Shown: piece after piece, positions 148 to 13,283 of the stretch
Numbering within the stretch: the stretch's first letter is position 1
Layout of the letters: each line of letters starts with the position of its first letter
Origin: Nitrospinota bacterium
GTDB taxonomy: Bacteria > JADFOP01
NCBI GenBank assembly: GCA_022562795.1
Contig: JADFOP010000048.1
Location: 1-14,709 of the forward strand
Reading direction: 5' to 3'
Length of the DNA: 14,709 nucleotides
Notes under the pieces: generated by a model
What the model was told of the DNA's origin: nothing
Seen by the model: the letters and a program-made list of their open reading frames with translations, nothing else
Database searches by the model: none
Program-made: the position numbers and the translations under genes

Positions 148-1332
148 ATGGCCCCGCGAGGAGACGCGGCTTCCGGGTCAAAGCCTGAGAGGCCTTTGAA
201 GATTTGTCTCATGCTCGGGGGCATGGGCTTTGGTGGAGGTGAGAAGTACGTCCTCTCCCTTGCCGAGCACCTCTCGGGCGCACACTACTCCTTTCACTTC
301 GTCACCCACCAAGAGAGCCTCTTCTGCGAGGAAGCGCGACGGCGAGGCTACCCCGTAACGGTCATCGACATGACCTGGCGCCTCAATCCCCTGAGCCTCT
401 ATAAGCTCATCCAGTTCTTCAAGCGCCAGCGCATCGATCTGGTTCACACCAACGGGGCTAGGATGAACTTCTACGGCCGCCTGGCAGCCCACAGGGCAGC
501 AGTTCCCAATATCTGCTCGACGGTCCACAACTCTCTGTTCGACTACCCCATCGGGGCCTTCAAGCGGTCCGTCTACGTAAAGGCCGACGCGTGGACCGCC
601 CGGTACGCCCACCGCATCATCACTGTGGCTGAGGCCCTGGCCCGCGACCTCCGAGACAGGTACGGCATCCCCGCAGAGAAGATTCTCACCATCCACAACG
701 GCATTGACCTGGCCGGACTGGCACCGGCACGCTCCCGCGACGCGGTCCTCAAAGAACTTGGCATTCCCACCGAGGCTCTGTGCATGGGAGCCATCGGGCG
801 AATGACCAACCAGAAGGGGTTCGTCTTCCTCCTGCGGGCTCTTCCCGCACTGTTCGACCGCTTCCGCACGGCCCGATGCCTACTGGTGGGAGAAGGGCCT
901 CTTCGCGGCGATTTAGAAAGGGAGGCGGCCAAGCTCGGAGTAAGCGACCGCTGCATATTCACCGGACTGAGAAACGACATCCCTGACCTGTTTCAGGCAA
1001 TGGATGTCTTCGTCATGCCGTCTCTCTCGGAGGGCTTTCCCATGGTCTTGCTCGAGGCGATGGGGATGGAGCGGCCCGTTGCGGCGACTGCCGTAAGCGG
1101 CAACCCCGAGCTCATCGAGCACGGCCGAACCGGCCTTCTCATCTCTCCTTCAGACCCCCCGGCTATTGTCGAGGCTGTCGCCTGGCTTTTGGAGAACCGT
1201 GACGAGGCGGTCGCAATGGGCCAAGCGGCCCGCTCGGCCGTCGAACAAAAATTCACCGTCACAGCGATGGCCGATAAGACCGAAGGCGTCTACAGGGCGA
1301 TGTGGAGCGCTCCCTCAGGAGGCCCGCCCTGA
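148..1332 (+). CDS. Glycosyltransferase family 4 (GT-B fold)
   Basis: This 394-residue protein is a probable retaining glycosyltransferase that moves a sugar from a nucleotide-sugar donor to a growing glycan at the cytoplasmic face of the membrane. The N-terminal domain shows the glycine-rich acceptor-side loop (LMLGGMGFGGGEKYV, residues 21-35). A hinge with HNGID is at 183-187. The C-terminal donor domain has AIGRMTNQKG (215-224), LLVGEGP (245-251) and the E-x7-E motif EGFPMVLLE (295-303). Length is normal for GT4. The start is set by the strong SD at 134-141. It probably follows the epimerase in one transcript and is convergent with the M16 peptidase gene, 38 bases away. Donor and acceptor cannot be read from the sequence. 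Confidence 0.93.
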   Translation: MAPRGDAASGSKPERPLKICLMLGGMGFGGGEKYVLSLAEHLSGAHYSFHFVTHQESLFCEEARRRGYPVTVIDMTWRLNPLSLYKLIQFFKRQRIDLVHTNGARMNFYGRLAAHRAAVPNICSTVHNSLFDYPIGAFKRSVYVKADAWTARYAHRIITVAEALARDLRDRYGIPAEKILTIHNGIDLAGLAPARSRDAVLKELGIPTEALCMGAIGRMTNQKGFVFLLRALPALFDRFRTARCLLVGEGPLRGDLEREAAKLGVSDRCIFTGLRNDIPDLFQAMDVFVMPSLSEGFPMVLLEAMGMERPVAATAVSGNPELIEHGRTGLLISPSDPPAIVEAVAWLLENRDEAVAMGQAARSAVEQKFTVTAMADKTEGVYRAMWSAPSGGPP

Positions 1333-2786: not shown

Positions 2787-4007
2787 TCACCTCTTCGGGT
2801 CTAAGACTTCCTGTATGGTCTCATCGACCACCTGGAGAAAATGCTTCTCATTGAGGTGGTCCTGGATATACCGGAGAGCGCCTTCGGCCAGGACGCGGCG
2901 CTCCTCGGGGTGGGCCAAGAGGTGGGCTATCTCTTCACTCAGACGAGCCACGTCCCCTGGGGGAACCAGGCGGCCAGTCTTGCCGTGGACAACCACATCG
3001 GGGATGCCACCGATTGCCGAGGTAATGATTGGGGTGCCGCATGCCATCGCCTCGGTAATCACGAGCGGCATCCCTTCGACGCGCAAAGTGGGGTTGATGA
3101 AGAGATCGCTCGCATTGTAATAGCCCGGCATGGCGTCCGGCTCGACGGCCCCACAGAAACGCACTCTCCCAACGATACCCAGCCGCTCGGCCAAGCCTTT
3201 TAGGTTCGCTTCGTAGCGTCCCCCACCAACTACAAGGACCCCGAGGTCGGGAAAGGTTTCGATAAGCCGACAAACGGCCTCGAGGCCCACCTGCAGCCCC
3301 TTCTGCTTGGAGAGCACGGCCGCCATGAGGATGACCGGCTGCTGCTCGCCAAAGCCATATTGCTTTCGCACGTGAGCCCGAAGGATGGGGTCAGGCCGGA
3401 AGCGCTCCACATCGGCGGGGGATAATGCGGGTCGAAACTTGGCCTCAGAGACCCCAAACTCCTTCATGAGAATTGGGATCAGAGAGGTATGGTCAACCAG
3501 TATCCGGTCGGCTGCCCGTAGCACATCCCGGAACCAGCACCGATATCCCCACCACCACTCGGGTAGGGCCCTGAGCAAAAAATGCGACATGTCCTTTAGT
3601 CCGTCCGCTTCGGTCCATCGGTTTCGCAGCCCGTCCTTCCACCCGCCGCTCAGAAACGAAACGAATGGCAACGGCGACCTAGGGCGGCAGGTGGTCGCCC
3701 AGCCGTAGCCCGCCATGGAGATGTCCATGACGACATCCACGGGGTCGCGGCCGTGAACCCTCTCAAATGCCTGAGCGCTGGCCTCCCAGTAGGCTTGCGA
3801 GAAACGGGCAATCGGGGTCTGAGCAAGGTAGTGAATCTCCACCCCCTGGGCCTCCTCGCGCTCCACACCCTCGGGATGGCGGGTCGTCAGCACCGTCACG
3901 CGGTGCCCAAGCTGGACCAAGGAGTCTATCAAGTACTTGGCCTGCCGCTCGTTTCCCCCCAACCCGTGGGCTAGCAAGCTCCTGGCAAAAAAGCAAATGT
4001 GCGCCAT
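2787..4007 (-). CDS. Glycosyltransferase family 4 (GT-B fold)
   Basis: A 406-residue glycosyltransferase of the GT4 type, probably adding a sugar to a lipid-linked or polymeric glycan at the inner membrane face. The N-terminus has HGLGGNERQAKYLIDSL (14-30), the usual glycine-rich loop plus helix. The donor domain shows SKQKGL (233-238), LVVGGGRYE (258-266), the E-x7-E motif EGMPLVITE (311-319) and ACGTPIITS with GGIPD after it, all classic. The ATG at 4007 is preceded by GGGAGG (4018-4023) at ten bases. It lies 86 bases after the GT2 gene on the same strand, a probable pair. It is not a close copy of the GT4 at 148-1332. Confidence 0.93.
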   Translation of the reverse strand: MAHICFFARSLLAHGLGGNERQAKYLIDSLVQLGHRVTVLTTRHPEGVEREEAQGVEIHYLAQTPIARFSQAYWEASAQAFERVHGRDPVDVVMDISMAGYGWATTCRPRSPLPFVSFLSGGWKDGLRNRWTEADGLKDMSHFLLRALPEWWWGYRCWFRDVLRAADRILVDHTSLIPILMKEFGVSEAKFRPALSPADVERFRPDPILRAHVRKQYGFGEQQPVILMAAVLSKQKGLQVGLEAVCRLIETFPDLGVLVVGGGRYEANLKGLAERLGIVGRVRFCGAVEPDAMPGYYNASDLFINPTLRVEGMPLVITEAMACGTPIITSAIGGIPDVVVHGKTGRLVPPGDVARLSEEIAHLLAHPEERRVLAEGALRYIQDHLNEKHFLQVVDETIQEVLDPKR

Positions 4008-4093: not shown

Positions 4094-5011
4094 TCAAAAG
4101 TCCCGCCAACTGGCGTCGCCCCGGAGGCCGTCCCAGAAGGCCCGTCCGATTATGCTCCACTCGACACCCCGCAAGCCCCGGTGATGGCGCACCGCATCAA
4201 CATACGCTTTGGGGATCCCCAAGAGGACGTGGCCCCCAATGGCGACCAGACGGCCCAGGCCCTTGGTATGGCGTCTCAATAGGATTATCTTGTTGCGGTA
4301 GGTGTAATAGATCCGCTCGGGGGTGCGGCGCCCGCCGGGGGCAACCTTGTGTTTGATGAGAGCCCCTGGGGCAAAGTAGATCCCATAGCCGTGCTCCTTG
4401 AGGCGCAGGCAGAAATCGACCTCCTCATGGTCCGTGTAGAAAGTATAATCGAAACCGTCCACCGAATTGAAGGCATCGGCCTTAATCAGTTGGCCACATC
4501 CTATAACAGAATCGCACTCCGTTGGTATGTCGGGGTCCTTCATGGTGAACCGCCCTGTGATGCGGTTCATATATCGTGCCGCGCTTTGGATCTCCTCAGG
4601 CCTGTCAAAGTAGACCACCCGTGCACCCACCACGCCGGCCTGGGGGTGAGCGGCAAAGACGGCTACCATTTGCCGGAGGCAGTCCGGGGCCAGCTCCACA
4701 TCGTCGTCAATACAAAGTATGTAGGCAGCCCGCTCGTCGCGGAGGCGAAATGCCCGATCCCGCGCGGGGCCGACGCCTAAATTCGTTTGGTGTTCCACCA
4801 GGCGAAGGTTCCACCACCCATCGGACCCCATGTCCTCCAAGGCCTCCCTGAGGCGAGCAGGCGAGCCGTCGGTGGAGCCGTTGTCCCAGATGAGGATTTC
4901 CAATCGCTCTTTGGGATAGTCGAGCTCCTGGAGAGAAGCTAAGGTGGCCAGAGTAAGCTCGGCTCTGTTCCGCGTGGGGAAGATGATGGAGACAAAGGGG
5001 AGGTTTTCCAT
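4094..5011 (-). CDS. Glycosyltransferase family 2 (GT-A fold, rhamnosyltransferase-like)
   Basis: This 305-residue protein is an inverting GT2 glycosyltransferase. It starts with the canonical VSIIFPTRNR (7-16) and has IWDNGSTDGS (41-50), in which the Asp contacts the nucleotide. The metal-binding DxD motif is IDDD (101-104). GCGQLIKADAF (171-181) and DHEEVDFCLR (194-203), the catalytic acidic segment, follow. Length is usual for the family. No membrane segment is obvious apart from a moderately hydrophobic C-terminal stretch, so it probably works at the membrane surface. The ATG at 5011 has a modest upstream AAGGGA. It precedes the GT4 gene and follows the CmcI-like gene by 226 bases. The sugar specificity is unknown. 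Confidence 0.93.
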   Translation of the reverse strand: MENLPFVSIIFPTRNRAELTLATLASLQELDYPKERLEILIWDNGSTDGSPARLREALEDMGSDGWWNLRLVEHQTNLGVGPARDRAFRLRDERAAYILCIDDDVELAPDCLRQMVAVFAAHPQAGVVGARVVYFDRPEEIQSAARYMNRITGRFTMKDPDIPTECDSVIGCGQLIKADAFNSVDGFDYTFYTDHEEVDFCLRLKEHGYGIYFAPGALIKHKVAPGGRRTPERIYYTYRNKIILLRRHTKGLGRLVAIGGHVLLGIPKAYVDAVRHHRGLRGVEWSIIGRAFWDGLRGDASWRDF

Positions 5012-5237: not shown

Positions 5238-5885
5238 TCATGCTATCTTACGAAGAAAGCCCTTGGGATTAAAGGTTAAATAGTGATGCTCTTTATCTCT
5301 GTCGACTATAAAATCTTTGTTCTCTTTTAAAAATTCCTCAATCGCCTCCATCGGGCCGGGGCCAAACTCTGGAACCACCGGATGACCGTTCAGGTTGGAA
5401 TCCTCAACGATCAAATAACTCCCCTTAGTAACAAAACTGCTGTACATTCTCAATTCGTTAAGTACGTGCTCTCTGGTGTGGTCCGAATCCAATATCACCA
5501 TGACCTCATCTTCGTCTGTTATAAAACTTCTAACCTTCTCGACAATCTCCTCCGAGGTCGATGAACCGCGCACATAGGATATTCGTTCGTGTTCTGGCCG
5601 TCCTTCTCTGTCCTCAATGTCGATTGTAATGACCTTTCCATGACCTAATAAGTGGCTAATAGAAGCCAGAAAAAGAGCACTCCCACCGTGGGCTGTTCCA
5701 CACTCGATGATGACATCTGGTTTCAAATCATAAATGATTTCCTGATACATCCACATATCCAACGGACACTTCAATGTTGGAACTCCAAACCAAAACGTGT
5801 TAGCCCAGGCCCGCCCAAAATGATGTGCATCGTAGTAAAGTTTATGAAAGTTATTCGTGACCTCTATTTCGACTTTGGGACTCAC
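5238..5885 (-). CDS. CmcI-like cephalosporin hydroxylase family protein (class I methyltransferase fold)
   Basis: The 215-residue frame belongs to the CmcI family, which has a SAM-binding Rossmann fold and is found in many polysaccharide clusters, where its real reaction is mostly unknown. Visible hallmarks are NNFHKLYYD (11-19), LKCPLDMWMYQEI (38-50), motif I IIECGTAHGGSA (59-70), VITIDIEDREG (85-95), MVILDSDHTREHVLNEL (129-145), YLIVEDSNLNGHP (157-169), FGPGPMEAIEEFL (174-186) and TFNPKGFL (204-211). The first start in the uninterrupted frame is GTG at 5885, with no good SD. The same frame extends upstream through a TGA (5892-5894) to an ATG at 5984 with a good SD and a family-like basic N-terminus. 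The natural gene is therefore probably 5238-5984 with a nonsense codon. GC is much lower than in the neighbours. Confidence 0.85.
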   Translation of the reverse strand: MSPKVEIEVTNNFHKLYYDAHHFGRAWANTFWFGVPTLKCPLDMWMYQEIIYDLKPDVIIECGTAHGGSALFLASISHLLGHGKVITIDIEDREGRPEHERISYVRGSSTSEEIVEKVRSFITDEDEVMVILDSDHTREHVLNELRMYSSFVTKGSYLIVEDSNLNGHPVVPEFGPGPMEAIEEFLKENKDFIVDRDKEHHYLTFNPKGFLRKIA

Positions 5886-5984: not shown

Positions 5985-6187
5985 CAGGCTCTACTCCACC
6001 ATGTTTCACGTCTGGTTGTCCATGTCGTCTCGTATGTAACCGACGTGATCCGCCAATGAGGACCCGTCCATTTGTCTACCGAGAGACCCATATTATAGGC
6101 CATTTCCTCAGTCGGTGGGGCTACACTCAATCGCGAAAAGCTCGAAGTATCGAAACGTCTGAATGCGAATGGAGGCAATAGTCTGCG
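5984..6187 (-). pseudogene. Probable 3' remnant of an unidentified gene
   Basis: A 67-codon open stretch, with an in-frame TAG at its upstream edge (6188-6190), ends in TGA overlapping the ATG at 5984 (TGATG), a typical arrangement for translationally coupled genes. The peptide contains PTEEMAYNMGLSVDKWTG and several Trp residues and looks more like a protein C-terminus than random sequence. I do not recognise the family. There is no SD and only a TTG (6178) as a possible start. Its upstream boundary, near 6190-6205, coincides with the start of the flippase-like repeat, which fits a truncated gene at a recombination junction. It could still be a chance frame. Confidence 0.35.
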
Positions 6188-6204
6188 CTATCTTTTATGC
6201 TCTG

Positions 6205-6343
6205 TTATAGAAGGGCTACATGAGGTTGACTCTCGGTAAAGTACTAACCCCTGCCTTAGCTCCTAAAAACCTTTGCCCTCACCCGACGTAGCAGAGGCTG
6301 AAGACCCCAGTGGACAGGGCCAGGCTCCATGCGGGCAGGCCAT
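6205..6343 (-). pseudogene. Decayed remnant of the flippase 3' end plus downstream flank (direct repeat copy 1)
   Basis: This stretch matches 9256-9446, the last codons and downstream flank of the intact flippase gene, in the same orientation. Bases 6283-6316 are identical to 9385-9418 (34 bases). Across 6283-6342 there are three substitutions and one deletion. The stop regions align (TAA at 6256-6258 against TAG at 9306-9308), and so does the 32-base flank 6205-6236 (26 identical). About 52 bases corresponding to roughly 9333-9384 are missing. A one-base deletion shifts the frame, and a TGA (6279-6281) interrupts what remains, so it cannot be functional. Upstream sequence (6344 on) has no clear flippase similarity. 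Confidence 0.8.
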
Positions 6344-6377
6344 GGACCAAGAAACCCTTAGCATAGAAAGGGTTGGA

Positions 6378-6518
6378 TTACAACAGGGCCTCGGAGAGAA
6401 AATGCCTTCCTGCTGGAGGTGAACCCTCCTCGTGAAGCCATCCACAGCGGCCGATGGTGTACCCTGGCCCTCTCAAACGGGTTGACTCCTTTCCTTTCGG
6501 AGCCTGTTTAACGTGCAT
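6378..6518 (-). CDS. Small ORF abutting the stop of the 811-residue protein
   Basis: An ATG at 6518 directly follows the TGA of the upstream gene (TGAATG) and opens 46 codons to TAA at 6378-6380. The peptide starts MHVKQAPKGKESTRLRG and shows no domain, membrane segment or recognisable family. It could be translated by termination-reinitiation, but it lies in the decayed intergenic zone and may be chance. Listed only because of the perfect abutment. Confidence 0.2.
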   Translation of the reverse strand: MHVKQAPKGKESTRLRGPGYTIGRCGWLHEEGSPPAGRHFLSEALL

Positions 6519-8954
6519 TCATACCTTCCTGGAGAGAGTGTGATTGATAGCTAGGGCCTGAGACCAAAGGAGCTTAGTGACTGACTTGACCGACGCCACG
6601 ATTAGAAACGCGCTGATGACGGCCACGAAGTATCCAAGAAGAACAGGAAGTCGAGCAAGTTCCTCCCACGGGAGACCGACATAAGCGGTTGAAACCAATA
6701 TGCTTAGCCTAACACCTATTCCACAAAGGGCTGGCAACAACGCGGTAGAGACCATCGATACCGTTGAAGCACCCGAATCGGCCCACGTCATTCCCCAAAG
6801 AAGAACCGTAGCAGGAAGGATATATCGGCTGGCAATCACAAGAACCGTCCGTTCAATATGTTCCGTCATCGCGGAACCGAGGATAAATTGGTCGGTCAGT
6901 TCTATAAGCTTTAAACCAAACCCGTTACCCGGCAATAGGTAGAAGGCCCATATAAACAGACTAATCATTATGCCTCTCGCCACCGCTGATGTTCCCCTTG
7001 CAGCTACCCAAATGGCAATGAGAATGGGTAGCGCGACAATGTGAGTCGTGTGATTAATATTACTGGAAGTCCCAAGATAGAAGAAGACAACCCACAGGGA
7101 CAACCAAACATCTCTGGTTATTGGTTTCTTCAAGCTGACTAATGCCACCGGAATTAATAACAGTACCAGTAGAATGGTCCGTACTTCTACGGTAGAAGGC
7201 CAGGCAATAGCCGCTACACCAGGGACAAACAATAATAGTCCATTGCTAAGAGTGCTTATTCTCTCCGGGTCTTCCCTTAACCTCCACCATAGAAAGGAGA
7301 AACCTACTACCAGGACGCCTGCGGCCAGAAGCCATCTGTCAGGTAAGCTGATGGGAGTGTATACGTTGTAGAACGTCAGCCTTCTGATGGCGAGGCCGAT
7401 CCAAAACGCACCGAAGAGCAGAATCCAAACGGGACGGCGGGACAACCCCCACGCCACCAAGGGGATGCTAAACACCAACCAGTTGAGGGGATGATACGGA
7501 TTGGCAGATAGAAACCCCCCCGTGAAGAGAAGCGTAAAAAGAAACAAGAGCAGCCCATCTTCCAGGCTGGAGTTCCTCTTGCCGAAGAGTCGAACATAGA
7601 ACATTGGCAAAGCCGCAATGAGCGCAAAAGCGGCCGCCACCTGCCAAGGATTAGCGAAAATTAAATTGGCGCTGAAAGGCAGATGAGAGGAGACGTAGTC
7701 CGATACTCCCACGTAGAACTCAATGCCGATGAGCGCGCAGAGACCAAGTATCCCGCCCCCAATCAGCCAAATCCTGGAACGCACGGTCCATCCGAGATCA
7801 CCATCGGAAAGGGAGACATATGCCAGAAGCGCCATGGATAACAAGGTGGCCGATACCATAAATACTCCCATGGGTGATGAGCCTTTTCTTCCCATGTTGG
7901 CCAGCCTCTTATCGCGAAGCTCATTCAGCGTCATGGGGGTTGAAGTCCCAGTTATTACCTTAGAAAGCAGCTTTATCATCATAGACTTGTCTTCGGCAGG
8001 TAGTTTGAGCAAATCTAGGGCTGGCAAAGCCGGGGATTCGTAGAACGGAGACACGCCCGCCAATATGGAGAGGGTTGGAGCCCAGTCTATTTGTAGAACT
8101 TTCGTCGGTCCCCCTTTTTTCACGCGGGGGCCTAAGAGAATAAACGGGGTTTCCATCACCATCTCAGTACGGTCCACATGAAAACCATTGTCATCCATCC
8201 CGTGTTCAGCCGTAATCAATACAACGTCCTTGTCTGTGGTCAAATTGACAAGTTGGCGCACATAATCGTCAATAATTCGTAGAGTAGGTGGATACTTAGG
8301 GGATCGTGGAGTTTCAAGATGTCCGATGTAATCCAAAGTGATGAATTGAACCACTGCAAGATCCCATTTTTCTTTCTTGAGAAAACCGTAAGCCTGATTG
8401 AATAGGTACCTCGCGTCCTTGCGGTACTGACTAAAGAGAAAAAATCGAGGCTTAAATGCGGTAAGATCAGTGTACTTACCGTAGGCCCCGTGCATAACGT
8501 CGGAACTAAAAATTACGGCTCGCCTGTTTTGTTGAGTTACACGTTGAAAAAGGTTATCAGAAGCCGTTGCTGATGCTTGAAAATCTTCAAAGAAGGCGAA
8601 GGGACTTGCCAGGGTTCCAGAGAATATTGCTAGGTCGCCCGCAATTGTTAGCGGGACGGAGGCCACCTCGGAGATGCCCCACGCGCCGTATTCTCGAAGG
8701 CTGGAAATAAATGGCATGTGGTCGCTGAACGTGAAGTCCTTGCGTGCGGAATCTAACAGAATTACCAACATTCTCCCACGCGGCGGAACCAATGACGAAG
8801 GAGGATTGATTTCTCCATATTCTACGTGATTCTGAATAGCTAGGAGACCGAAGCCTGCGTAAGCAATCGCGGTCGAAAAAATGAGCAGAGCCAAAAAGAA
8901 TAAAATGGCACCTTTTTGTCTTGCCCACAAGGGGATGATTCTCCTTTTCACCAC
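6519..8954 (-). CDS. Membrane-anchored alkaline-phosphatase-superfamily protein, GPI ethanolamine-phosphate-transferase-like
   Basis: An 811-residue protein with one N-terminal membrane segment (about 16-40), an extracytoplasmic alkaline-phosphatase-fold domain (about 60-300) and roughly 13-15 membrane segments from about 363 to the end. Metal and active-site motifs in order are LVILLDSARKD (63-73, D68), VPLTIAGD with candidate nucleophile T103, FITLDYIGH (204-212, D208/H212), IDDYVRQL (228-235) and ITAEHGMDDNGFH (247-259, E250, H251, H259). Motifs and layout resemble PIG-O/PIG-N/PIG-G, which transfer phosphoethanolamine to a GPI glycan. Those show D-H where this protein has E250-H251. Likely role (inference): phospho-group transfer to, or hydrolysis from, an exported glycan or lipid. 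Start is GTG at 8954; a second GTG follows immediately. GC is lower than in the flanking flippase gene. A simple phosphodiesterase/sulfatase role remains possible. Confidence 0.8.
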   Translation of the reverse strand: MVKRRIIPLWARQKGAILFFLALLIFSTAIAYAGFGLLAIQNHVEYGEINPPSSLVPPRGRMLVILLDSARKDFTFSDHMPFISSLREYGAWGISEVASVPLTIAGDLAIFSGTLASPFAFFEDFQASATASDNLFQRVTQQNRRAVIFSSDVMHGAYGKYTDLTAFKPRFFLFSQYRKDARYLFNQAYGFLKKEKWDLAVVQFITLDYIGHLETPRSPKYPPTLRIIDDYVRQLVNLTTDKDVVLITAEHGMDDNGFHVDRTEMVMETPFILLGPRVKKGGPTKVLQIDWAPTLSILAGVSPFYESPALPALDLLKLPAEDKSMMIKLLSKVITGTSTPMTLNELRDKRLANMGRKGSSPMGVFMVSATLLSMALLAYVSLSDGDLGWTVRSRIWLIGGGILGLCALIGIEFYVGVSDYVSSHLPFSANLIFANPWQVAAAFALIAALPMFYVRLFGKRNSSLEDGLLLFLFTLLFTGGFLSANPYHPLNWLVFSIPLVAWGLSRRPVWILLFGAFWIGLAIRRLTFYNVYTPISLPDRWLLAAGVLVVGFSFLWWRLREDPERISTLSNGLLLFVPGVAAIAWPSTVEVRTILLVLLLIPVALVSLKKPITRDVWLSLWVVFFYLGTSSNINHTTHIVALPILIAIWVAARGTSAVARGIMISLFIWAFYLLPGNGFGLKLIELTDQFILGSAMTEHIERTVLVIASRYILPATVLLWGMTWADSGASTVSMVSTALLPALCGIGVRLSILVSTAYVGLPWEELARLPVLLGYFVAVISAFLIVASVKSVTKLLWSQALAINHTLSRKV

Positions 8955-9305: not shown

Positions 9306-9446
9306 CTAGCGTCCAAACACCCTCGCCCTCAGCAGCCGTAACATTTGCAGGTCCTCCCGCTCAAGCTGCTGAAGGAGCAGGAGACCGACGTAGCAGAGGC
9401 TGAAGACCCCAGTGGACAAGGCCAGGCTCAATACGGGCGAGGCCAC
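9256..9446 (-). repeat. Direct repeat copy 2 (intact flippase 3' end and downstream flank)
   Basis: The partner of the decayed copy at 6205-6343. It includes the last 46 codons of the flippase, its TAG and 50 bases beyond. The two copies flank the 811-residue protein gene in direct orientation, about 3.05-3.1 kb apart. Confidence 0.75.
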
Positions 9447-10913
9447 AGGCGCCACCAACCGGAACCCCACTACGACCAAGCCTCCAGCCAGGCCGGCAGC
9501 GAGCGGTTTGGCCCACTTTCTATCATAGGGCGAGAGTTTCAAGAACCACCGAACCTGCGCGAGGCCCAAGAAATTGCCTACAACCATGGCCGCCCCCGTC
9601 GCTATGGCCGCACCCAGAATACCAAAGCGGGGGATCAAGAGGAGATTGAGCAAAAAGTTCAACCCGGTCACCGCAAAGGTGTTGGCCAAAACCAGCCGAC
9701 TCCAGCCGGCCATGCGAATTATAGCGCCGCACGATCCAACGCACGAGTTGTAGAAAACGGCCCCGGCCAAGATAATCAATGCCAGACCGCCCTGCGCGAA
9801 CTCGGCGCCAAAGATTACCAAAATGTCCCGGCTGAGCAGCACGACGAGGACAAATATGGGCAGGGTGAGGGTAAAGACCCAACGGGTATCGATCTTGAAG
9901 AGCTGGTCGAGCCCATCCATGTCGTTGCGATGAAGGAGCTCTGCGATTATCGGAGCGAAGATGGAACCAAAGGCAAAATGGATCATCCCACATAAAGCCG
10001 CCACCCGCAGGGCCACGCTGTAGACGCCGACCTGTGCCGGGGCGGTAAAGTAGCCCAACATTATCGTATCGGTCCATTCCACGATCATCGCCAGCATGCC
10101 GGCCCCAAGCAAGGGAACTGAAAAGCTGATCAAGGCCCAGGCTTGGCCGGGTTCCCTCCGTCTCGTGCCGGAGGTTAGGAGGCGTCGGAGCGCCAAGCCG
10201 GCCAGGACGGCGCCTGCCACTGCGGCAACGACGTAAGAGCCCACCGCCGCCCCGATTTCCAAGCCCCCAAGGACTAGCACCAGGAAGAGCCCAATGCGTG
10301 CGGCGGGCTCAAAAAGGTTGCTTACCCAGAACGTCTCTTCCATGCGTTGAAAGCCCCTGGTCGCATGAAGCCACAGCGTGCAGAAAACGGCGGCCGGCAC
10401 CGCTATCGTCATCAAGCGCAGCATGCCACCTATGGCGGGCTGATGGAATATTCGGGTCGCAACGGGAGCCGCCACGGCCCAGCCAGCCAGAACCACTACC
10501 ACGGAAGAGGCGAGCCCCATCCACGAGGCCGTCCCTACCAGGCCCGGTATGTGGTCAGCGCTCCCCCCGGCTCTTTGCTGGGCGACGAACCGCATCACGC
10601 CTTGATCGAGACCCATCGCCGCAACCGTCGTCATGATGGTAACGGCGCCAACCAGGAGCATATAGGTCCCGTAGCCGCCAGCGCCCAGATAAGTGGTGAG
10701 GATAAAAATGTAGGCGACGCCGAGGAAGCGCCGAAGGACAACCCCCAAAATGGCCAGCCCCCCACCCCGAAGGAGCGTGCGGAGATAGCTTTGGAGTTCA
10801 TCAATGAGCCGGTCGGCGTCAGAGGTCGCTTCTTCCACAATGGGCCTCAAGTTCTCCACGTACTCTGGGGTGGAAGCGGTCCGGCGGCGCCTCTCCCTGA
10901 TAGGTCTCTTCAC
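9306..10913 (-). CDS. Polysaccharide flippase (Wzx/MOP superfamily)
   Basis: A 535-residue polytopic membrane protein of the MOP flippase superfamily, which flips lipid-linked oligosaccharides across the inner membrane. It has about 12-14 hydrophobic segments starting near residue 50. The first pair contains the family-typical LGVAYIFILTTYLGAGGYG (69-87) and MGLDQGVMRFVA. There is a conserved-looking ATGAAMVVGNFLGLAQVRWF near the C-terminus. About 48 charged, non-membrane residues precede the first segment, longer than usual. The start is GTG at 10913, with an in-frame TAA just upstream and only a weak GGGC SD. A strong sigma70-like promoter lies at 10951-10979. It is the first gene of the minus-strand glycan block and divergent from the CDP-alcohol phosphatidyltransferase-like gene. 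A degraded duplicate of its 3' end lies at 6205-6343. Confidence 0.93.
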   Translation of the reverse strand: MKRPIRERRRRTASTPEYVENLRPIVEEATSDADRLIDELQSYLRTLLRGGGLAILGVVLRRFLGVAYIFILTTYLGAGGYGTYMLLVGAVTIMTTVAAMGLDQGVMRFVAQQRAGGSADHIPGLVGTASWMGLASSVVVVLAGWAVAAPVATRIFHQPAIGGMLRLMTIAVPAAVFCTLWLHATRGFQRMEETFWVSNLFEPAARIGLFLVLVLGGLEIGAAVGSYVVAAVAGAVLAGLALRRLLTSGTRRREPGQAWALISFSVPLLGAGMLAMIVEWTDTIMLGYFTAPAQVGVYSVALRVAALCGMIHFAFGSIFAPIIAELLHRNDMDGLDQLFKIDTRWVFTLTLPIFVLVVLLSRDILVIFGAEFAQGGLALIILAGAVFYNSCVGSCGAIIRMAGWSRLVLANTFAVTGLNFLLNLLLIPRFGILGAAIATGAAMVVGNFLGLAQVRWFLKLSPYDRKWAKPLAAGLAGGLVVVGFRLVAPVASPVLSLALSTGVFSLCYVGLLLLQQLEREDLQMLRLLRARVFGR

Positions 10914-11214
10914 AATCTGCCCGACTTAACAGCCAGAGAGACTCTTCGGCATTATAGGAGATTAGCCCGATAGTGACAAGGAACCTCTTCTTCCAGAATG
11001 AGCTCCTGCCCGAGGGGTCGCAGCGGGCCGTTCGGAATCGCTCTTTTCAAGGTCTTAGGGATTTGCTATCTTTTGTTTGCAACTTGGGATGAAGGCCTAA
11101 GGTGTCTAGAGGATAGAACGGTGCTATCTAGAGACCTGTCGGAAGTGATTGCTAGAGCTGACTCGGATGCCCTTAGTATACGTCAGGTGGCTAGAGCCGG
11201 GGCCTTTAGAGCCG
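10914..11214. other. Divergent intergenic region
   Basis: About 300 bases between the flippase and the CDP-alcohol phosphatidyltransferase-like gene. It holds the strong minus-strand promoter at 10951-10979. For the plus strand I see only a weak candidate (TTTTCA near 11044, an AT-rich TATC stretch near 11068-11074). A short hairpin GATAG/CTATC (seven-base loop, about 11112-11128) lies in the plus-strand leader. No gene is evident. Confidence 0.4.
10951..10979 (-). promoter_or_regulatory. Sigma70-like promoter of the flippase gene
   Basis: On the minus strand TTGTCA (10974-10979) and a perfect TATAAT (10951-10956) are separated by exactly 17 bases. The predicted transcript starts near 10944, about 30 bases before the GTG at 10913. 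This is one of the two best promoters in the window. Confidence 0.8.
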
Positions 11215-12036
11215 ATGCGCACTAAAGTCCCTTCGGGCGAAACGCGCCCGACCCTCGATGAGGTCTGGGCCTCGTGGAGCGACGAGAAGCGTGGCTGGGA
11301 TGCCCGGTACCCCTGGATTTACTACTGCAAACGACCTCTCTCGCTTTATCTGACCCGGTGGCTCATTCCCTTTGGGGTCACGGCCAACCAGGCTACGGCC
11401 TTCTCGGCGCTGGCCCTGGTTGGGAGCATTATCTGCTTCAGCTTAGGTTTCAATGCGGGCTTTGTCGCGGGAGGCATCCTGCTGATGGTCTTCTTCGTAG
11501 CCGATAAGGTAGATGGCAACCTCGGCCGATTCCTAGAGGGAGGCTCGCAGGCCGGAGAATTTTTCGACAACGTCGCGGGTGCGCCTTCCTTCACCATCTA
11601 CTTCTTTATCGGGCTAGGGCTGATGCGGACGCCCGATGCCTGGGGCCACCACCTCGTTGCCGCGGTGACCGCCGAGCCCGACGCCGCCTTCGTGGGGGCC
11701 GGGCTCTTAATCCTAGGCGCCTGGACGACCATCGCCGCCCTCTTGACCATGGTCCTGAGAACCCTGGTCACCCTCAACCTCCTGCAGAAGGCCGAGCCCG
11801 AACGTCTGGCGGCCCTCCCCGGTGTGCTCGCCACTTCCCATGGCCGGCGCCTCCACAAATTCAAGGTGAATCTGGTCGATCTCCAGGGGCACGATTTCCT
11901 CCCCCTTGTTGCCGCAATGACCGGCGGGATGAGCTTGTTTCTCGCCGCCAGCGCCGTCGTCCAGACCATCAACCTAATCCTGGAGACGTTCTACTACTGT
12001 CGCCGCGCTCTTCGGCTCTTTCCGCCTTCGGGCTAA
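11215..12036 (+). CDS. CDP-alcohol phosphatidyltransferase family protein with altered active site
   Basis: A 273-residue membrane protein from the ATG at 11215; ATG at 11167 and TTG at 11149 are in-frame alternatives (up to 295 residues). No start has a clear SD. The family transfers a phosphatidyl or phospho-alcohol group from a CDP-alcohol. Numbered from 11215, the signature is D97-K-V-D100-G101-N-L-G104-R105-x8-G114-x3-D118-x3-G122. It fits the canonical spacing, but Ala before Arg is Gly and the fourth aspartate, the presumed catalytic base, is Gly. About six hydrophobic segments are present, plus an N-terminal amphipathic part (RPLSLYLTRWLIPFGVTANQ, 40-59) as usual for the family. It is divergent from the flippase gene and probably part of the same surface-lipid or glycan function. 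It is either inactive or a divergent subfamily. Confidence 0.85.
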   Translation: MRTKVPSGETRPTLDEVWASWSDEKRGWDARYPWIYYCKRPLSLYLTRWLIPFGVTANQATAFSALALVGSIICFSLGFNAGFVAGGILLMVFFVADKVDGNLGRFLEGGSQAGEFFDNVAGAPSFTIYFFIGLGLMRTPDAWGHHLVAAVTAEPDAAFVGAGLLILGAWTTIAALLTMVLRTLVTLNLLQKAEPERLAALPGVLATSHGRRLHKFKVNLVDLQGHDFLPLVAAMTGGMSLFLAASAVVQTINLILETFYYCRRALRLFPPSG

Positions 12037-12199: not shown

Positions 12200-12275
12200 G
12201 GGGCAGTAGCTCAGTCGGGAGAGCGCCACGTTCGCAACGTGGAGGTCGTGGGTTCGATTCCCATCTGCTCCACCA
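12200..12275 (+). tRNA. tRNA-Ala (anticodon CGC)
   Basis: A complete 76-base cloverleaf with encoded CCA. The acceptor stem GGGGCAG pairs with CTGCTCC and has the G3-U70 wobble that marks alanine tRNAs. The D-arm is GCTC/GAGC. The anticodon stem CCACG/CGTGG holds the loop TTCGCAA, so the anticodon is CGC and reads GCG. The T-arm GTGGG/CCCAT holds the loop TTCGATT. It has its own promoter and a likely downstream terminator. Confidence 0.97.
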
Positions 12276-12503: not shown

Positions 12504-13244
12504 TTAAGACTTCTTAAGACCTGCCAGAACATGAAATGTCCTAACCTTTGTCCATCGATAGTTTATTTGACGGCAGAAATCAAAAAGCGAGTCATTTCTT
12601 CCCACGTCATGAGCTAATAACATTCCGTTGCTTTTTAAAACAGGCCATGCGCTGGTGAATTCAAACATCATGTTTTCGTAGGAATGATCGCTGTCATGAA
12701 GAAAAATATCAATCGGGCTAACTTCTTGAAGGAGTGGGTCTAAAATATCTTCTGAGGTACCAAGCAGCAGGTTCCAGCGACTTCTGAGGTCGTCTTGGAC
12801 TATCCATCCACTAGATTGTTTTTCGTCAGGCAAGTCTATCGAGTGCAGAACCCCTTTCCCGTTCTTTTCCATGGCCTTGAGGATAAACGCTGATGATTTC
12901 CCAGCCCCCACTCCCGTCTCAACAACCACATCTGGTTTCATGAGACGAACTACAACGTAGAGTAAATCCGCCTCTCGCGTCATATAAAACCTGCCAGGGC
13001 CTGGCGCTTTCAACTCCAGGCTCTCATTGACTGAAGTTAAAAAGCTTTCCTCCTCGGCCAGTTCCTCAAACAATTCTGATACGTTTTTCTTGGGAATTCC
13101 CAAAAGATCAACGGGAAAGCGAATCTTTGAGGTAAATGTGTATCTATACTTAAGCTCCCTCACCGCTCTTTTAGGGCCAAATATTGCTTTAACGATATGT
13201 TTGGGATAAATACTTCGCAGAACGTCCAGCGTCCATCGACTCAT
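12504..13244 (-). CDS. Class I SAM-dependent methyltransferase (Methyltransf_24-like)
   Basis: A 246-residue cytoplasmic protein from the ATG at 13244; the frame also opens at a TTG at 13274 with ten more residues, a less likely start. The SAM-binding motif I is VVVETGVGAGKSS (106-118). HSIDLPD (134-140) holds the acidic ribose-binding residue. DIFLHDSDHSYENM (179-192) and LLAHDVGRND (209-218) complete a fold shared with O-methyltransferases and CmcI-like proteins. The target is unknown; similar genes in glycan clusters methylate sugars. It ends in tandem stops (TAA TGA). GC is strikingly lower than in the tRNA, the CDP-alcohol phosphatidyltransferase-like gene or radC, suggesting transfer. 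A TATATT box at 13284-13289 lies 39 bases upstream of the ATG. Confidence 0.85.
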   Translation of the reverse strand: MSRWTLDVLRSIYPKHIVKAIFGPKRAVRELKYRYTFTSKIRFPVDLLGIPKKNVSELFEELAEEESFLTSVNESLELKAPGPGRFYMTREADLLYVVVRLMKPDVVVETGVGAGKSSAFILKAMEKNGKGVLHSIDLPDEKQSSGWIVQDDLRSRWNLLLGTSEDILDPLLQEVSPIDIFLHDSDHSYENMMFEFTSAWPVLKSNGMLLAHDVGRNDSLFDFCRQINYRWTKVRTFHVLAGLKKS

Positions 13245-13283
13245 GACAAGAGCTCTCTCGGGGGAAGCACCCAATTTGCTCTT

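What the first reader, a model, noticed from the sequence alone, without database searches (positions are those of the whole stretch)
6519..8954. Bacterial protein with the layout of eukaryotic GPI ethanolamine-phosphate transferases
Seen: one N-terminal membrane segment, an alkaline-phosphatase-fold domain with D68, candidate T103, D208/H212, E250-H251 and H259, then about 14 membrane segments. Known: PIG-N/PIG-O/PIG-G share this order and the motifs DxxGH and DHGM-x-x-x-GxH. Inference: it transfers a phospho-alkanolamine (or similar) onto an exported glycan or glycolipid, which would be a prokaryotic parallel to GPI decoration. The E in place of the usual D before H251 is a notable deviation.
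Basis: partly seen in the sequence, partly recalled or inferred. Interest (0 to 1): 0.65.

Follow-up and report, generated by a model that had tools for sequence, protein, structure and literature searches.

The report
Bacterial cousin of GPI-anchor decorating enzymes
A bacterium from a poorly known candidate phylum carries, inside a sugar-polymer assembly cluster, a membrane enzyme whose catalytic domain looks closer to the eukaryotic enzymes that decorate GPI anchors than to the ordinary bacterial enzymes sampled here, but its membrane half is new and its substrate is unknown.

Summary
The 811-aa ORF (6519-8954, minus strand) has one N-terminal membrane segment, an alkaline-phosphatase (AP) superfamily domain with D68, T103, D208, H212, E250, H251 and H259, then about 14 hydrophobic segments. 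It is a real gene: a full-length homologue (44-45% identity) lies in a second phylum (Candidatus Tectomicrobia MAG JACPUC010000019.1). E250 is conserved there, while 24 other compared AP domains have D. A modest AlphaFold model of the AP domain matches AP enzymes in the PDB (best Z 16.4).

Pfam finds only PF01663. The membrane half matches neither PIG-N nor PIG-O/G C-terminal models, nor anything else searched. Yet AP-domain trees group the pair with human PIG-N/O/G (support 94/90), and a grouping with another bacterial AP-plus-membrane family is disfavoured (p-AU 0.024). No PIG structure was found in the PDB copy.

The gene sits among a flippase, glycosyltransferases and methyltransferases. 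Most likely it moves a phospholipid head-group phosphate ester onto an exported glycan or glycolipid. Donor and acceptor are unproven. It works like a GPI phosphotransferase, but should not be filed as one.

The parts
6519..8954 (-). gene for the 811-aa AP-domain/polytopic membrane protein
   Evidence: ORF; 45% identical full-length homologue in another phylum
8850..8906 (-). N-terminal membrane segment, residues 17-35
   Evidence: hydropathy
8040..8774 (-). AP-superfamily catalytic domain, residues 61-305
   Evidence: PF01663 2.8e-12; AlphaFold model with fold matches Z 16.4 and below
8751..8753 (-). D68, predicted metal ligand
   Evidence: aligned with invariant D of AP relatives
8646..8648 (-). 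T103, predicted nucleophile (S in the G050 homologue)
   Evidence: aligned with T/S of PSLTLP-type motifs
8319..8333 (-). D208-xxx-H212, predicted metal ligands (DxxGH)
8178..8207 (-). E250-H251 ... H259, predicted metal ligands (EHGMxxxGxH); E replaces D
   Evidence: E in both family members, D in 24 other AP domains
6585..7871 (-). C-terminal membrane domain, residues about 362-790, about 14 hydrophobic segments, no known family
9306..10913 (-). Wzx-like polysaccharide flippase, upstream on the same strand (context)
   Evidence: PF01943 8.1e-23
5238..5885 (-). CmcI / rhamnosyl O-methyltransferase-like, downstream (context)
   Evidence: PF04989 4e-69
4094..5011 (-). GT2 glycosyltransferase (context)
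   Evidence: PF00535 1.1e-26
2787..4007 (-). GT4 glycosyltransferase (context)
   Evidence: PF00534 5.2e-40
148..1332 (+). GT4 glycosyltransferase (context)
   Evidence: PF13692 1.3e-40

Best explanation
It is a membrane-embedded AP-superfamily phosphotransferase on the outer (periplasmic) face of the cytoplasmic membrane. By analogy with AP-superfamily lipid phosphotransferases, T103, held in a two-metal site (D68, D208, H212, E250, H251, H259), attacks a phospholipid head group, becomes transiently phospho-esterified, and hands the phospho-alcohol to a hydroxyl of a glycan or glycolipid that the neighbouring flippase has brought across. The 14-segment membrane domain would bind the lipid donor or lipid-linked acceptor. 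Inferred: catalysis, topology, donor (phosphatidylethanolamine is plausible) and acceptor.
For: The seven expected ligand/nucleophile positions are filled, six as usual and one by the conservative D-to-E change. AP fold confirmed by prediction: pTM 0.65, mean pLDDT 50, best Z 16.4 over 210 residues; the top Foldseek rows include PbgA/YejM and LtaS. Gene context: flippase upstream, methyltransferase and two glycosyltransferases downstream on the same strand; in G050 a GT9 glycosyltransferase lies directly upstream on the same strand. Trees place the pair with PIG-N/O/G at 94/95 and 94/90. Phosphatidylserine decarboxylase is present in the window's genome.
Against: No hit to GPI-transferase C-terminal models. 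No phosphatidylserine decarboxylase match in G050, which is 88% complete, so phosphatidylethanolamine may not be the common donor. E replaces the usual D ligand. PIG sequences came from memory. Grouping support is just below the strict mark. The AP model is only medium quality. Two known family members are too few for residue covariation or a membrane-domain model.
Confidence: 0.55

Rival explanations
1. Same mechanism, different cargo: it transfers another phospholipid-derived group (for example phosphoglycerol or phosphoinositol), as LtaS or OpgB-type enzymes do with phosphoglycerol, so the GPI likeness is only in layout.
For: LtaS and PbgA structures are among the top Foldseek rows. G050 shows no phosphatidylserine decarboxylase. 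Both family-bearing genomes carry two inositol-1-phosphate synthase genes, and the window genome a CDP-inositol-type bifunctional enzyme beside one of them.
Against: LtaS, EptA and YejM carry their membrane helices before the AP domain (established knowledge); here they follow it. The AP domain groups with PIG enzymes in the trees.
Confidence: 0.25
2. A membrane-anchored phosphodiesterase or phosphatase of the nucleotide-pyrophosphatase type that hydrolyses an exported substrate rather than transferring a group.
For: The only significant Pfam family is PF01663; NPP and iPGM structures give similar Z. Soluble AP relatives are common: 78 of 386 sampled genomes have an AP match.
Against: A 14-segment membrane domain conserved over two phyla at 39% identity, with conserved charged and polar residues, is not needed for hydrolysis. 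In the 30 loci read, nearest soluble relatives lack it. Gene context is glycan assembly.
Confidence: 0.12
3. The bacterial genes come from a eukaryotic GPI transferase by horizontal transfer (or the reverse), and the membrane half diverged beyond recognition.
For: AP-domain grouping with PIG-N/O/G and very patchy bacterial occurrence: 2 of 386 sampled genomes, neither same-genus G002 nor same-class G001.
Against: Long branches separate the bacterial pair from the PIG rows (path about 3.6 changes per site); no detectable similarity in the membrane half; eukaryotes could not be sampled here.
Confidence: 0.08

Closest known systems
Eukaryotic GPI ethanolamine-phosphate transferases PIG-O/Gpi13, PIG-G/Gpi7, PIG-N/Mcd4
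   Same: One N-terminal segment, AP domain, then many membrane segments (general knowledge); HGMxxxGxH spacing; AP-domain similarity 43-74 bits and tree grouping with sequences recalled from memory.
   Different: C-terminal membrane domain matches neither PF19316 nor PF04987; E for D in the metal site; no GPI pathway context shown.
AP-domain plus about 5-6 membrane segments family of G077's phylum (L005, L044-L046, L048, L049)
   Same: N-terminal segment, AP domain, C-terminal membrane segments.
   Different: Shorter membrane part with its own motifs (FNTEEQ, WYLPDL..GFKYYLD); usual DHG motif; forcing it into one clade with the window pair is disfavoured, p-AU 0.024.
LtaS / EptA / PbgA-YejM (bacterial envelope AP-superfamily membrane proteins)
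   Same: AP fold; LtaS and PbgA/YejM are among the top structural matches; LtaS and EptA transfer phospholipid head groups at the outer face of the membrane (general knowledge).
   Different: Membrane helices precede the AP domain in these (general knowledge); no sequence hit to their families in Pfam or NCBIfam.
PF01663 type I phosphodiesterases / nucleotide pyrophosphatases
   Same: Pfam family of the AP domain, 2.8e-12; overall active-site pattern.
   Different: The soluble relatives read here lack C-terminal membrane segments.

Membership tests
AP superfamily, PF01663-type | Profile match above curated cut-off | tested here: met
   47.3 bits against cut-off 23
AP superfamily, PF01663-type | Fold | tested here: met
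   Model pTM 0.65, mean pLDDT 50; 465 of 1000 candidate chains at Z 8 or more, best 16.4 with rmsd 3.4 over 210 residues
AP superfamily, PF01663-type | Metal ligands D, D/H, D-H, H and T/S nucleophile | tested here: inconclusive
   All positions filled, but E250 replaces D, conserved in the homologue.
GPI ethanolamine-phosphate transferase (PIG-N/O/G) | Order: one membrane segment, AP domain, about 10-15 membrane segments | tested here: met
   1 + AP + 14 peaks by hydropathy
GPI ethanolamine-phosphate transferase (PIG-N/O/G) | C-terminal domain PF04987 or PF19316 | tested here: not met
   No match in hmmscan at E up to 10, weak matches partly filtered; also none in the genome searches, though no control genome rang there
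GPI ethanolamine-phosphate transferase (PIG-N/O/G) | DHG motif (D as ligand) | tested here: not met
   EHG in both family members
GPI ethanolamine-phosphate transferase (PIG-N/O/G) | AP domain branches with PIG-N/O/G | tested here: inconclusive
GPI ethanolamine-phosphate transferase (PIG-N/O/G) | Structure like a solved PIG enzyme | not testable with these tools
   No PIG enzyme found in the PDB copy by a sequence search with a recalled PIG-N segment; membrane-domain model failed
GPI ethanolamine-phosphate transferase (PIG-N/O/G) | Transfers ethanolamine phosphate from phosphatidylethanolamine to a glycolipid | not testable with these tools
   Needs biochemistry
LtaS/EptA-type phosphotransferases | N-terminal multi-helix membrane domain before a PF00884 domain | tested here: not met
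   Single N-terminal segment and no PF00884 match

The most novel reading that the evidence does not exclude
A bacterial sister lineage of the eukaryotic GPI phosphoethanolamine transferases that decorates an exported glycolipid, possibly an inositol lipid, with a phospho-alcohol: a prokaryotic counterpart to a step of GPI-anchor synthesis whose origin is not, to the reviewer's knowledge, established.
Probability: 0.25. Interest if true: 0.78.

Novelty: new variant of a known kind. Interest (0 to 1): 0.5.

Why it matters
The three ethanolamine-phosphate transfers of GPI synthesis are done by enzymes whose prokaryotic origin I know of no report for, and the literature searches here found none. 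A rare bacterial family whose catalytic domain groups with them, carrying a different membrane half and sitting in a glycan-export cluster, would give a concrete candidate for where that enzyme type arose. It would also be a new kind of bacterial surface-glycan decoration with a conserved metal-ligand swap (Glu for Asp) that can be assayed.

Tried and rejected
AlphaFold on the full length with two sequences failed (mean pLDDT 39), so the membrane fold is unknown. Viral-contig scans with five queries gave no family member; one gave a distant soluble AP relative, used as a row of the AP model. The plasmid collection gave only generic AP-family proteins at 23% identity. A membrane-domain profile over 386 genomes found only the two known members, and none in the PDB. 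Pfam and NCBIfam scans of the membrane half and of neighbours of the homologue gave nothing further. Literature searches found no bacterial GPI-transferase homologue. Considered and rejected: ordinary sulfatase (no PF00884 match); phosphopentomutase or iPGM (NCBIfam scores far below cut-offs); spurious ORF (45% identical homologue); eukaryotic contamination (the contig carries bacterial glycan genes, RadC-like sequence and a tRNA). No PIG structure was found in a sequence search with a recalled PIG-N segment; its absence from the structural lists therefore says nothing.

Full report
Observation. The ORF at 6519-8954 on the minus strand encodes 811 residues. Hydropathy averaged over the protein and its homologue shows one N-terminal segment and 14 C-terminal ones, with a further weak peak inside the AP domain. 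Pfam reports PF01663 at 2.8e-12 and a sub-threshold PF01676, nothing else.

It is a real and rare family. Among 386 diverse bacterial genomes one other full-length member was found, G050, 45% identical over residues 19-788; the same locus carries the public name Candidatus Tectomicrobia JACPUC010000019.1. The window's own phylum holds three genomes, and neither the same-genus nor the same-class genome has the gene. The AP domain is 59% identical between the two members and the membrane part 39%, with conserved H488, N491, R506, R507, N634, H635, H638, N677, D688, Q689, E764 and E765 among others. A profile of the membrane part alone found only these two.

Catalytic domain. An alignment of 26 AP domains shows D68, T103, D208, H212, H251 and H259 in register with the AP motifs. 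The one oddity is E250: E in both family members, D in the other 24 rows. The homologue has Ser at the T103 position. A three-row AlphaFold model of the AP domain reached pTM 0.65 with mean pLDDT 50. Foldseek ranks PbgA/YejM, LtaS, phosphopentomutase and NPP enzymes highest; VIA-align gives Z up to 16.4 over 210 residues at 3.4 A, with phosphoglycerate mutases, sulfatases and NPPs tied within about one unit. This fixes the superfamily, not the substrate.

Relation to GPI transferases. No PIG enzyme was found in the PDB copy by a sequence search with a PIG-N segment, and no eukaryotic sequences are held. I therefore typed the human PIG-O, PIG-N and PIG-G AP domains from memory; they may contain errors and are a lead rather than database evidence. 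The recalled PIG-O domain behaves as expected against Pfam (PF01663 8e-17), and PIG-G and PIG-O match each other at 187 bits. With these, the window AP domain scores 73.9 bits to PIG-O and 72.0 to PIG-G, against 67.0 for the best bacterial non-family member; the homologue G050 itself scores higher with G077 (87.8) than with the PIG domains (75.5, 68.9). Two trees place the window pair with PIG-O, PIG-G and PIG-N (94/95 and 94/90). Forcing it with the other bacterial AP-plus-membrane family is disfavoured (p-AU 0.024); that group was named after the first tree was seen. Against membership, neither PigN nor PIGO_PIGG models match the C-terminal half, and the Asp of the DHG motif is replaced. So: works like, probably related in the AP domain, not filed as a member.

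How unusual is the layout? In the 30 best AP-domain loci read from 386 genomes, members other than the window, G050 and G077 lack multiple C-terminal membrane segments. G077's phylum has a family with about 5-6 segments and its own motifs. The general order is therefore not unique in bacteria, but the large membrane domain is so far confined to two genomes.

Context and likely role. Upstream on the same strand is a Wzx-like flippase; downstream come a CmcI/rhamnosyl O-methyltransferase-like protein, a GT2 and a GT4. In G050 a GT9 glycosyltransferase precedes the gene. This fits decoration of an exported glycan or glycolipid. Phosphatidylserine decarboxylase is present in the window genome but was not found in G050, which is 88% complete, so ethanolamine phosphate is plausible but not secure. 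Both genomes have two inositol-1-phosphate synthase genes, absent in G001 and G002, and one in the window genome sits beside a CDP-inositol-type bifunctional enzyme. With two genomes this co-occurrence is only suggestive.

Verdict.

Noticed in passing
window 6283-6336 and 9385-9438: A 54-nt direct repeat (94% identical): one copy lies in the 3' end of the flippase gene, the other downstream of the AP gene, so the AP gene is flanked by it. It may be a remnant of duplication or recombination that placed the gene here.
   Followed up: partly
window 11149-12036 (+): A CDP-alcohol phosphotransferase-like protein near PI-phosphate and archaetidylinositol-phosphate synthase models. By eye, its motif DKVDGNLGR-x8-GEFFDNVAG seems to lack the last Asp of the usual signature.
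   Followed up: no
L053 (G000:C25), 6022-8706: An inositol-1-phosphate synthase beside a bifunctional nucleotidyltransferase/CDP-alcohol transferase resembling IPCT-DIPPS; a second synthase gene lies on C12.
   Followed up: partly
L005, L044-L046, L048, L049: A separate bacterial AP-domain family with about 5-6 C-terminal membrane segments and shared motifs FNTEEQ and WYLPDL..GFKYYLD, in G077's phylum.
   Followed up: partly
window 5238-5885 and 12504-13274: Two Methyltransf_24/CmcI-like methyltransferases in one window.
   Followed up: no
window 12200-12275: tRNA-Ala (CGC) beside the cluster.
   Followed up: no
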